Of a DNA stretch of 64,000 nucleotides, positions 29,985-34,810 are shown piece after piece. The notes beneath the pieces were generated by a model. That model was not told the origin of the DNA, did no database searches, and saw only the letters and a list, made by a program, of their open reading frames with translations. Every line of letters begins with the position of its first letter. Positions within the stretch are counted from its first letter, which is position 1. Both the position numbers and the translations under genes were made by a program. Origin of the DNA: Deltaproteobacteria bacterium (GTDB lineage Bacteria; Myxococcota_A; Polyangia; Polyangiales; JADJMO01); the NCBI GenBank assembly GCA_025363655.1, contig JANYDK010000008.1, positions 1 through 64,000 on the forward strand, read 5' to 3'.

Positions 29985-30626
29985 TCAGTACGGAGGCGGG
30001 TAGCCGCCGTCACCGACATCGGGCGCGGTCGCGTCGACCGGTCCGGCGTCGCATCCGGCGACCGCTTTGCTCGGCGTCTGCGCCGACGACTCGACGATGT
30101 CTTTTTGGTTCACCCCGACGCTGAAGACGCCGATGACCCGTTCGGCGTCGTCGCCGTCGAACTTGGCGTCGGCGAAGGCGAGGCGGAGATCTTCGACCCA
30201 CGCCGCGAAGTCACCGCCGCTGATGCCGTTGCCGGCGTGCGACGACTTCATGTCGCGACAGAGGAGGCCCTTCGAGTCGGGACCGGGATACTTCACGCGC
30301 TGACCCGATTTGGTGCAGTGGAGAATCGCCGCCACCTGCATCGCCAGACACTCTTCGACGTGGGCCAAGCGCGCCGCGGGGATGGCGCTGAAATATTGCT
30401 GGATGCGGCAGTCGTTCTTCAGGCGTTCGACGTGCTTCGCTGCCACCAGTCGTGCACCGGCAAAGCCGCCGTACTCGACGTCGCAGTCGGAGGGCGGGCC
30501 GACGTCGATCGGCGCGCTGTCGACCACGGGCGACGCGTCGGCGACGGCTTTGTCGTCGAAGGTTCGCGCGCAGCTCACGCCCACGAGGAGCACGAGGCCG
30601 GCGGTGATCGAGGAAGAAAAGCGCAT
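29985..30626 (-). CDS. Truncated haemoglobin (group 1-like) lipoprotein
   Basis: 213 aa. Lipoprotein signal with C19 in G-V-S-C, an Asp/Pro linker, then a globin domain of about 115 residues. The family anchors are present: Y-G-G-F near the start, V-K-Y-P-G before the F-helix, and M-K-S-S-H-A-G-N-G-I, where H130 is the proximal haem ligand. The B-helix, normally with F-Y at the distal site, reads A-A-K-H-V-E-R-L here, so the distal pocket may lack the usual Tyr. Five extra cysteines sit in the domain. It is divergent from the kinase-cytochrome-barrel operon, which suggests a joint envelope haem role. Confidence 0.75.
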   Translation of the reverse strand: MRFSSSITAGLVLLVGVSCARTFDDKAVADASPVVDSAPIDVGPPSDCDVEYGGFAGARLVAAKHVERLKNDCRIQQYFSAIPAARLAHVEECLAMQVAAILHCTKSGQRVKYPGPDSKGLLCRDMKSSHAGNGISGGDFAAWVEDLRLAFADAKFDGDDAERVIGVFSVGVNQKDIVESSAQTPSKAVAGCDAGPVDATAPDVGDGGYPPPY

Positions 30627-30770
30627 GATCAGGAGCCTAGCAGGGCGAATTTCGGAGGCTCTCTGTATACGTCCGAGAGAAGCACTCGACTCGAATTCTT
30701 TTATTATCGCGGCGTGCGTCCACCGCACCTCGCGGGTCATCCTCGAGGGGGATAGAGTGAGGGGACCGTC

Positions 30771-32693
<1,923 letters not shown>

Positions 32694-32694
32694 G

Positions 32695-33213
32695 ATGACG
32701 CGCTCGATGAGCTTCTCACGATCGACGCTGCTCTTGCTCGCGTCGCTCGCGTGCGCGCTGCCTCTTTCGTCGCTCGGTTGCAGTCAGGTCGCGCCGCTCG
32801 TCGGCAGCGAACAGCTCCGCGATGCGGGCGTCGTCGACGTCACCGGCGCCGAGGTCGGGCAGGTCTCCTTCGCGCGCGACATCAGGCCAATCCTCGAGCG
32901 ACTCCCCACCGATCCGGCCGGTCCCGGTTGCAAGAAGTGCCACTATTCGAGCGAGGCCTCGCACATCGGGCTCGATCTCGGCGGGCTCGACCTTTCTTCA
33001 CTCGGCACGCTCCGCCAAGGCGGCGGCACCAGCGGCTCGAAGATCGTCATCCCGGGAAATCCAGCCGAATCGGCGATCATCCAGAAGCTGCGCGGCACCT
33101 ACGCGTTCGGTACGCGCATGCCGAAGAGCGGCCCGCCGTTCCTCTCCGAAGCCGAAATCGAGCTCATCAGCACGTGGATCGCCCAAGGCGCGAAGGGAGC
33201 CGACAGCGAATGA
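32695..33213 (+). CDS. Lipoprotein c-type cytochrome (first copy)
   Basis: 172 aa. Signal with lipobox S-L-G-C (C29). A single haem c site, C79-K-K-C-H83, sits in a fold like the Planctomycete-type cytochrome C domain (D-I-R-P-I-L before it, P-G-N-P-A-E-S-A-I-I and R-M-P-K-S-G-P-P after it). M142 in R-M-P is the probable sixth ligand. The ATG is one base after the kinase stop, and the next gene overlaps by ATGA. An envelope electron carrier is the natural role; the partner is probably the following cytochrome or the barrel. Confidence 0.8.
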   Translation: MTRSMSFSRSTLLLLASLACALPLSSLGCSQVAPLVGSEQLRDAGVVDVTGAEVGQVSFARDIRPILERLPTDPAGPGCKKCHYSSEASHIGLDLGGLDLSSLGTLRQGGGTSGSKIVIPGNPAESAIIQKLRGTYAFGTRMPKSGPPFLSEAEIELISTWIAQGAKGADSE

Positions 33214-33566
33214 GTCTCCGTCCGTTCGTGACCAGCGCCGCGATCGTCGCGGGCGCTGCCCTGATGACGCTCTTCTCGGCGGGTTGCCCGAGTCGACCCG
33301 CCGAAGGGCTCGATCCGTCGAAGGTGCCTGAGACGGTCCGCGCCGATTACGACGTGTTCGCCCAGCGTTGCTCGCGTTGTCACTCGCTCGCGAGGCCGCT
33401 CGACAGCGGCATCACCGAAGACGAGTACTGGCAGACCTACGTCGAGCGCATGCGTCGCATGCCGAGCAGCGGCATCTCGCAGACCGACGCCACCGTCATC
33501 CTCCGCTTCCTGCACTGGTATTCGCAGGCAAAAATCGCAGAAAAGAAGGCGAAGGCAGGCGGATGA
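33210..33566 (+). CDS. Small c-type cytochrome lipoprotein (second copy)
   Basis: 118 aa. Signal with lipobox S-A-G-C (C26) and one haem motif, C54-S-R-C-H58. Downstream R-M-R-R-M-P-S-S-G offers a Met ligand, as in small class I cytochromes. The Lys-rich C-terminus (E-K-K-A-K-A-G-G) is unusual. It overlaps the preceding cytochrome gene and the following barrel gene by four bases each (A-T-G-A), so the three are surely one transcript. Shortness makes the fold hard to assign further. Confidence 0.8.
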   Translation: MSLRPFVTSAAIVAGAALMTLFSAGCPSRPAEGLDPSKVPETVRADYDVFAQRCSRCHSLARPLDSGITEDEYWQTYVERMRRMPSSGISQTDATVILRFLHWYSQAKIAEKKAKAGG

Positions 33567-34810
33567 GCTCGCGTCGTCCGCTCTTTCGTTTCGCCAAAGA
33601 TTGCTTCGCAACTTTGGCCTCTCCCTGGATCTCCCCTTCGGGTCGGTCCGCTCGATTCGTCGGCTTCGCGCTCGGCGTCTTGCTCGCCGTCTTGAGCTCG
33701 CTCTACGCGCGTCGTGCGGCGGCCATCGAGCACCACTTCGCCGGCTCGGGACAGGTCGACTACCTCTTCATCCCGACGCAGCCGAAGGCGACGGGGCGCA
33801 ACATCGCCTTCGACGGTTTCACGACCGAGCTCGCGCTCAAGGTCGCCATCGATCTCAGCGACCACCTCTCGGCCAACGTCAAGCTCTGCTACGGCTGCCA
33901 CGGCTTCGAGGCCGACATGGCCTACTTCGACTACCGCTTCGGCGACGAGCTCAACCTCCGCGTCGGCCGGTTTTCACCGTCGTTCGGCAACTTCAACCTC
34001 CGCCACGATCCGGCCAACCATCGCCTCAGCGACAAGCCGCTCCCCTACGAGATGGGACGTCTCTTGCGGCTGCGCGAGTGGAACCTCGGCGTTCTTCCGA
34101 GCCCCTTCCCCGACAACGGCGTCGAGCTCAACGGCACGCATTGGTTCGGCGACAAGCTCCAGGTCGACTACGCCGCGTATGCGGTGTCGGGCTTCAAGGG
34201 CGACAAGTCCGGCTTCGATCTCGACTTCCAGCAGTCGCGCGCGCCCAACCTCTACTACGTCGACAACAACAGTCGCCCGACCTTCGGAGGTCGGCTCGCG
34301 GCCACGCTCAAGCTCGGCGACGCCTCCGATTTGACCTTCGGCGGCAGCGGCATGTACGGCACGTTCGACCCTGAAAATACGCTCCATTACGGCATCTTCG
34401 GCGCCGACCTGACGCTGCGCATCGATCGCACCAACGTCCGCGCCGAGTACCTCGTGCGTCGTCAGCAGTTCGACGTCAGCGATCCGACGCGCTTCAAGTA
34501 CGCCGTCCCCACGAGCGGCGGCGACTTCTTCTCCAAGCACGGCGCCTACTTCGAAATCGAACATCCGATCAGCAAGGCCGTCGATTTGATCGGTCGCTTC
34601 GACACGCTCTTCCGCGTCGGCAACGTCGCCGCTGGCAGCTCACTCTCGAAAGAGAGCTCCGTCCTCCGTTGGACGATCGGTACTGCCATCGGCATCGAAC
34701 GCGGGTTGAAGGTGAAGCTCTCGGCCGAGGCGTGGAAGTTCTCGGATGCCGACGCCAACAACAAGAAGACGGACGTCGCCGTTCACCTCGGCGTCATCGG
34801 CACCTACTGA
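33563..34810 (+). CDS. Outer-membrane beta-barrel (porin-like) with a haem c motif
   Basis: 415 aa. The N-terminus holds a long signal-like segment (F-V-G-F-A-L-G-V-L-L-A-V-L-S-S-L). The remainder is rich in alternating aromatic/polar strands of porin type (V-D-Y-A-A-Y-A-V-S-G-F, L-T-F-G-G-S-G-M-Y-G-T-F, V-A-V-H-L-G-V-I-G-T-Y at the C-terminus). Early in the barrel a full C109-Y-G-C-H113 motif occurs, which is rare in porins. The block R-H-D-P-A-N-H-R-L-S-D-K-P-L-P-Y-E-M-G looks conserved. With two cytochromes translated just before it, this could be a haem-bearing conduit through the outer membrane. Confidence 0.75.
   Translation: MSSRRPLFRFAKDCFATLASPWISPSGRSARFVGFALGVLLAVLSSLYARRAAAIEHHFAGSGQVDYLFIPTQPKATGRNIAFDGFTTELALKVAIDLSDHLSANVKLCYGCHGFEADMAYFDYRFGDELNLRVGRFSPSFGNFNLRHDPANHRLSDKPLPYEMGRLLRLREWNLGVLPSPFPDNGVELNGTHWFGDKLQVDYAAYAVSGFKGDKSGFDLDFQQSRAPNLYYVDNNSRPTFGGRLAATLKLGDASDLTFGGSGMYGTFDPENTLHYGIFGADLTLRIDRTNVRAEYLVRRQQFDVSDPTRFKYAVPTSGGDFFSKHGAYFEIEHPISKAVDLIGRFDTLFRVGNVAAGSSLSKESSVLRWTIGTAIGIERGLKVKLSAEAWKFSDADANNKKTDVAVHLGVIGTY

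What the first reader, a model, noticed from the sequence alone, without database searches (positions are those of the whole stretch)
29985..34810. Candidate envelope haem module with its own kinase
A secreted truncated-haemoglobin lipoprotein lies divergent from four genes that abut or overlap: a membrane Ser/Thr kinase with an external AgmX-like domain, two c-type cytochrome-like lipoproteins, and an outer-membrane barrel carrying CxxCH. The tail overlaps (1-base gap, ATGA, ATGA) imply one translation unit. Three haem c motifs plus one b-type haem protein in 4.8 kb look like a haem or electron-transfer path across the envelope coupled to kinase signalling. I know of no described system with this set.
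Basis: partly seen in the sequence, partly recalled or inferred. Interest (0 to 1): 0.75.

Follow-up and report, generated by a model that had tools for sequence, protein, structure and literature searches.

The report
Haem-motif porin operon with kinase
Many uncultured myxobacteria carry a short, tightly linked gene set that encodes an outer-membrane pore with a conserved haem-attachment motif, one or two haem lipoproteins and a membrane kinase with a TonB-like tail; it looks like an undescribed way to pass or sense electrons at the cell surface.

Summary
In detail: five ORFs at the stated coordinates, a 1-base gap and two ATGA overlaps, and three CxxCH motifs. The core is real and conserved. 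In 53 loci from other genomes plus 7 independent ones, nearly all Myxococcota, a Ser/Thr kinase with an AgmX/TonB-like tail, one or two monohaem cytochrome lipoproteins and the barrel lie together, while flanking genes differ. The barrel is a predicted 16-strand OprP/OprO-type porin; its CxxCH, at the β3-β4 hairpin, is kept in 60 of 61 barrels and absent from its distant porin relatives. It is not Cyc2: no N-terminal cytochrome domain and no Cyc2 motif. The kinase tail folds like a TonB C-terminal domain behind a Pro-rich linker. In one locus of another phylum the porin and cytochromes sit without a kinase beside respiratory genes (Rieske, cytochrome b, multihaem cytochrome), which favours electron transfer. 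The globin is a remote truncated globin but not part of the core: only 2 of 26 readable loci have it nearby, both close kin. Best reading: an outer-membrane redox relay (direction unknown) coupled to a kinase. Haem attachment, substrate and signalling are inferred, not shown.

The parts
30771..32693 (+). Hanks-type Ser/Thr kinase, 640 aa: kinase domain, one TM segment, Pro-rich linker of about 126 aa, TonB/AgmX-like C-terminal domain
   Evidence: PF00069 E 2.2e-45; TM and linker by hydropathy; HRD and DFG present in 33 of 34 orthologous kinase domains
32367..32690 (+). C-terminal periplasmic tail with two invariant Cys; predicted TonB-CTD-like fold
   Evidence: AF2 pLDDT 93; the 17 best VIA rows are all TonB, TolA or FusB C-terminal domains, best Z 7.7, rmsd 2.1 over 81 residues; 11 of 12 members hit NF033768, window copy 25.2 bits, below cut-off
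32695..33213 (+). cytA: monohaem c-type cytochrome lipoprotein (CKKCH at 32929-32943), PSCyt1-like
   Evidence: PF07635 29.1 bits over cut-off 22; orthologues in the module of nearly all relatives
33210..33566 (+). cytB: monohaem c-type cytochrome lipoprotein (CSRCH at 33369-33383)
   Evidence: sub-threshold cytochrome c family hits; CxxCH in 41 of 41 orthologues
33563..34810 (+). 16-strand OprP/OprO-like porin with embedded haem c motif
   Evidence: AF2 pLDDT 86, 16 strands; VIA best 2o4v OprP Z 28.8, 4rjw OprO Z 28.5
33887..33901 (+). CYGCH (residues 109-113) at the beta3-beta4 hairpin of the barrel
   Evidence: C109, C112 and H113 invariant in the 50-row alignment A2; 53 of 54 barrels; absent in 10 distant porins
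29985..30626 (-). truncated-globin-like exported protein, divergent; neighbour, not a conserved member of the module
   Evidence: profile match to a PF01152 relative; near the module only in the window, L044 and L055
33586..33655 (+). dispersed palindromic repeat lying in frame in the N-terminal coding part of the barrel gene
   Evidence: 46 matches in the genome counting this one; hairpin z -3.05; absent from relatives L044, L045 and L051

Best explanation
An outer-membrane redox relay with a kinase read-out. A 16-strand OprP-type porin carries one covalently bound haem c at the tip of its beta3-beta4 hairpin, facing the lumen under the conserved loop L3. It exchanges electrons with a soluble extracellular partner and hands them to, or takes them from, the monohaem lipoproteins cytB and cytA on the envelope and from there the respiratory chain. 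An inner-membrane Ser/Thr kinase reaches across the periplasm with a Pro-rich linker and a TonB-like domain that has a conserved Cys pair, and reports the state of this complex to the cytoplasm. Shown by computation: gene linkage, motif conservation, porin fold, TonB-like tail fold. Inferred: haem attachment, lumen position, electron flow, direction (uptake slightly preferred by analogy with Cyc2), contact between tail and complex, signalling.
For: The CxxCH is kept in 53 of 54 barrels and 7 of 7 further independent loci, is invariant in A2, and is absent in 10 distant porins that fall outside the haem-barrel group, one split of the tree at 100/100. At least one c-type cytochrome lies beside the barrel wherever the locus is intact. 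The fold is OprP/OprO, the porin type also reported for Cyc2. In L095, from another phylum, the order is two PSCyt1 lipoproteins, barrel, cytB, Pyr_redox/Fer4, Rieske, cytochrome b N- and C-parts, multihaem cytochrome, all on one strand. The genome has three c-haem maturation proteins of PF01578. A kinase or its tail lies next to the module in all Myxococcota loci with enough sequence, and the tail resembles TonB/TolA C-terminal domains.
Against: No biochemical evidence for haem. One haem near the outer face leaves a long gap to periplasmic cytochromes, and an OprP-like pore is too narrow for a cytochrome domain, so the electron path is not explained. cytA has CxCH instead of CxxCH in 18 of 52 orthologues. 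cytA or cytB is missing in some loci. No donor or acceptor gene recurs in Myxococcota. Contact between tail and complex is untested, and L063 has a degenerate kinase.
Confidence: 0.5

Rival explanations
1. A surface redox or gas sensor rather than a conduit: the porin haem and cytochromes sense redox state, O2 or NO, and the TonB-tailed kinase is the output; no net electron flow serves metabolism.
For: The kinase with its tail is next to the module in nearly all Myxococcota loci; the tail has two invariant Cys; monohaem proteins only; no recurrent respiratory genes in Myxococcota neighbourhoods.
Against: L095 has the haem barrel and cytochromes without a kinase, inside a respiratory gene run; the L063 kinase domain has lost its HRD and DFG motifs.
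Confidence: 0.27
2. The CxxCH binds no haem and is a structural disulphide or metal site in an ordinary anion porin; the cytochromes serve another enzyme.
For: Fold and marginal Pfam hit of phosphate-selective porins; haem on a barrel hairpin has no precedent known to me.
Against: The His is kept as strictly as the two Cys; the motif travels with c-type cytochromes; the distant porins lack it.
Confidence: 0.1
3. Haem or iron handling: the porin imports or exports a haem- or iron-related ligand and the kinase uses its TonB-like tail to energise or report transport.
For: TonB-like tail; a ferritin-like gene directly after the barrel in L092/L034 and L094; a globin neighbour in the window, L044 and L055.
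Against: No TonB-dependent receptor plug, no siderophore or haem uptake genes; the tail belongs to a kinase, not to ExbBD-driven TonB; the ferritin-like and globin genes are rare additions.
Confidence: 0.08

Closest known systems
Cyc2 / Cyt572 fused monohaem cytochrome-porin (PMC8406198, PMC10654088)
   Same: single CxxCH in a 16-strand porin related in fold to phosphate porins; outer membrane; monohaem
   Different: here the motif is at the beta3-beta4 hairpin inside the barrel, not in an N-terminal cytochrome domain; the AXPXFAR motif is absent; found with monohaem lipoproteins and nearly always with a TonB-tailed kinase
OprP/OprO phosphate-selective porins (PF07396)
   Same: 16-strand fold, VIA Z 28.8 and 28.5
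   Different: about 15% identity; invariant CxxCH; in an operon with cytochromes and a kinase
Porin-multihaem cytochrome conduits (MtrAB, MtoAB, PioAB, Geobacter conduits)
   Same: an outer-membrane barrel encoded with c-type cytochromes
   Different: 16 strands and only monohaem proteins; no multihaem wire inside the barrel in Myxococcota
AgmX/GltJ-PglI tail (NF033768) and TonB/TolA C-terminal domains
   Same: TM, Pro-rich linker and a C-terminal periplasmic domain of TonB-like fold
   Different: the cytoplasmic part is a Hanks kinase; the window copy scores below the family cut-off
Truncated haemoglobins (PF01152)
   Same: the neighbouring P0001 keeps the DMKxxH proximal-His motif and aligns with a PF01152 lipoprotein
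   Different: exported, with extra Cys, no aromatic residues at the usual B9-B10 sites, no direct Pfam hit

Membership tests
Cyc2 fused cytochrome-porin | single CxxCH plus 16-strand porin | tested here: met
Cyc2 fused cytochrome-porin | N-terminal cytochrome domain before the barrel | tested here: not met
   CxxCH at residues 109-113 after strands beta1 and beta2 of the barrel
Cyc2 fused cytochrome-porin | AXPXFAR[Q/K][T/Y] motif | tested here: not met
   0 of 54 barrels; motif defined in PMC8406198; no DNA match in own genome
Cyc2 fused cytochrome-porin | Fe(II) oxidation | not testable with these tools
   needs biochemistry
OprP/OprO porins (PF07396) | 16-strand porin fold | tested here: met
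   VIA Z 28.8 with OprP against about 24 for general porins
OprP/OprO porins (PF07396) | Pfam gathering score | tested here: inconclusive
   21.7 against 20.9 bits, a short stretch of 54 residues only
OprP/OprO porins (PF07396) | arginine ladder, trimer, phosphate selectivity | not tested
   no coordinates or assay available
Porin-multihaem conduit (MtrAB type) | multihaem cytochrome in the operon | tested here: not met
   one CxxCH per protein in the window; a multihaem gene is seen only in L095
c-type cytochrome PSCyt1 (cytA) | PF07635 score and CxxCH | tested here: met
   29.1 against 22 bits
Hanks-type Ser/Thr kinase | PF00069 with HRD and DFG motifs | tested here: met
AgmX/PglI tail NF033768 | curated score 40 bits | tested here: not met
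   25.2 bits for the window tail; 11 of the 12 tails scanned match at E up to 0.01
TonB/TolA C-terminal domain | fold | tested here: met
   17 best VIA rows are TonB, TolA or FusB; best Z 7.7, a middling score, against 5.4 for the first unrelated row
Truncated haemoglobin PF01152 (P0001) | Pfam score | tested here: not met
   no Pfam hit
Truncated haemoglobin PF01152 (P0001) | profile relation to a PF01152 member and proximal His | tested here: met
   98.7%, E 4e-16; DMKSSHAG

The most novel reading that the evidence does not exclude
A new class of outer-membrane metalloprotein: a porin with haem c fixed to its own barrel wall near the outer mouth, read out by a TonB-tailed Ser/Thr kinase, so that surface redox chemistry is transduced directly from the outer membrane to cytoplasmic phosphorylation.
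Probability: 0.3. Interest if true: 0.87.

Novelty: new variant of a known kind. Interest (0 to 1): 0.64.

Why it matters
If the barrel carries haem c, it is a second, structurally different solution to the monohaem porin known from Cyc2, found in a phylum of mostly heterotrophic predators with no such described pathway, and it comes with a dedicated kinase. That would make surface electron exchange in uncultured Myxococcota, and kinase sensing across two membranes, directly testable. At least one carrier genome (G360) is nearly closed (two contigs).

Tried and rejected
Globin as a module member: rejected as general (2 of 26 loci), kept as an addition in the window's nearest subgroup. Cyc2 membership: rejected. 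Sequence search of solved structures with the barrel profile: no real hit; with the globin: none. Viral contigs and plasmids: no relatives. Pfam scan of the tails: no useful family, one weak TonB_C hit. Promoter/terminator scan: one weak site, terminators not above shuffles. A literature search on CXCH haem motifs with cytochrome maturation found nothing. A search for barrels in the phylum of L095 found only that one among 5 genomes. The second upstream gene shared by L044 and L055 has no homologue in the window.

Full report
What is there. The five ORFs, the 1-base gap, the two ATGA overlaps and the three CxxCH motifs are exactly as reported. The kinase has a clear PF00069 domain; cytA passes PF07635; cytB gives only sub-threshold cytochrome hits; the barrel gives a marginal phosphate-porin hit. 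The AgmX-like tail is sub-threshold for NF033768. The globin has no Pfam hit, but a tandem-globin lipoprotein from another genome that is related to it hits PF01152 at 4e-18, and the profile comparison gives 98.7% probability, with the proximal-His motif kept. It is therefore a remote, exported truncated globin.

Is it conserved. A barrel search of 141 Myxococcota genomes gave ten strong orthologues besides the window's. A scan of genome contigs with the alignment gave 53 loci, nearly all metagenome-assembled Myxococcota. A wider search found the barrel in 30 of 379 Myxococcota genomes, one match each, spread over many families, including one 11 Mb genome in two contigs. HMMs built from the first ten loci show the order kinase with tail, cytA, cytB, barrel in most of the 53 loci. 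Variants have only cytA, only cytB, an extra DUF7482-like lipoprotein, or cytA and cytB after the barrel. Seven further loci on contigs not in that set (L101-L105, L107, L110) gave the same picture: CxxCH 7 of 7, a kinase or its tail 7 of 7, cytB 7 of 7, cytA 6 of 7. Of the 53, only L061, L068, L081 and L095 show no kinase or tail near the barrel; in the first three at most about 0.5 kb lies upstream of the first module gene before the contig ends, and L095 lacks the kinase. L046 has the kinase, but its tail match is only marginal. Neighbouring genes differ between lineages, so linkage is under selection rather than simply inherited.

The haem motif in the barrel. C109, C112 and H113 are invariant in the 50-row alignment. 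CxxCH is found in 53 of 54 barrels; the exception is L083, whose barrel ORF is broken. Ten distant porins of Myxococcota, which fall outside the haem-barrel group (one split, 100/100), have no CxxCH and nine of them no cysteine at all in the compared part. The predicted structure (pLDDT 86) has 16 strands; the motif ends strand beta3 and forms the very short loop to beta4. With short turns, long loops and a C-terminal aromatic residue, standard porin topology puts this loop on the outer side. K107, C109 and the polar residues of beta3 alternate with hydrophobic ones, so C109 should face the lumen, under the long conserved loop 138-183, which holds H148, H153, M164 and M167; this step is inference. 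The best structural matches are OprP and OprO, Z 28.8 and 28.5 against about 24 for general porins.

The kinase. 33 of 34 readable kinase domains keep HRD and DFG. After one TM segment most have a linker of about 90-295 residues, Pro-rich in most loci. The tail model (pLDDT 93) matches TonB, TolA and FusB C-terminal domains in the first 17 rows, best Z 7.7; Z in this range is middling, but these rows stand apart from the next, unrelated ones at 5.4. One tail also hits the TIGR01352 TonB family. The tail has two invariant cysteines. The genome has 34 AgmX-like tails at E up to 0.001, so the domain itself is common; its fixed place beside this barrel is not. L063 has lost HRD and DFG but keeps the tail.

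The informative outlier. L095, from a small phylum (five genomes held), has the haem barrel between two PSCyt1 lipoproteins and a cytB-transglutaminase fusion, followed on the same strand by a Pyr_redox/Fer4 protein, a Rieske protein, cytochrome b N- and C-terminal parts and a multihaem cytochrome. It has no kinase. This supports electron transfer as the older, core role.

The globin. Within the loci, clear globin homologues occur only in L044 and L055 besides the window. In the tree L044, L051 and L055 form a clade within the window's 13-row group, and L044 is the window's nearest row; L051 is cut off upstream. In L044 and L055 the gene points the same way as the kinase; in the window it is divergent. 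It may be a local accessory, but it does not define the system.

Mechanism. The best-supported reading is an outer-membrane redox relay made of a haem-bearing porin and monohaem lipoproteins, with an inner-membrane kinase that touches the complex through a TonB-like arm. Haem attachment is very likely from the motif, its strict conservation and the company of cytochromes, and the genome has c-haem maturation proteins; it is not shown. The electron path is the weakest step: one haem near the outer mouth and a narrow pore leave a gap to periplasmic cytochromes, a difficulty like that discussed for Cyc2 in PMC8406198. A pure sensor role is the main rival.

Comparison. Cyc2 works most like it but fails as a family on two defining tests: no N-terminal cytochrome domain and no AXPXFAR motif. 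MtrAB-type conduits need multihaem proteins, absent here. No paper found in the held library describes this gene set; the library lacks most subscription journals. Verdict: real, conserved, undescribed as far as could be checked; a new variant of monohaem porin systems, with an unusual kinase partner.

Noticed in passing
window 33586-33655: A dispersed palindromic repeat (hairpin CCAAAG...CTTTGG) with 46 matches genome-wide, counting this one, lies in frame in the signal-peptide-coding part of the barrel gene; close relatives lack it.
   Followed up: partly
cytA orthologues, e.g. L086, L089, L092, L057, L101: In 18 of 52 cytA orthologues the haem motif is CxCH (CGCH or CSCH) instead of CxxCH, in several lineages and also in a two-contig genome (L101); no paper was found on haem attachment to such a motif.
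   Followed up: partly
L027:7486-8487 (-), L028:7527-8540 (+), and similar genes in about 16 of the loci L056-L088: A lipoprotein of about 330-360 aa, weakly like DUF7482, is a further linked member of the module in Kofleriaceae-type and related loci; absent in the window.
   Followed up: partly
L034:8545-9165 (-), L094:1890-2513 (+): A TAT/lipoprotein-like gene overlaps or directly follows the barrel; the L034 copy is a Ferritin_2 protein (PF13668), the L094 copy looks alike.
   Followed up: no
L063:3665-4495: The module kinase has lost the HRD and DFG motifs (pseudokinase) but keeps the TonB-like tail.
   Followed up: no
L045, L052, L056 after the barrel: A kinase gene directly follows the barrel; in L056 it bears the TonB-like tail while the upstream kinase has none.
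   Followed up: no
L040:1465-2412: An exported protein with two tandem truncated-globin domains (PF01152, 4e-18); exported globins occur scattered in Myxococcota.
   Followed up: partly
L095:7655-8818: cytB is fused to a transglutaminase-like domain (PF01841) in the kinase-free version of the module.
   Followed up: no
L080:2182-2829: A lipoprotein-like gene with a CIECH motif near its C-terminus follows the barrel; possibly another c-type cytochrome.
   Followed up: no
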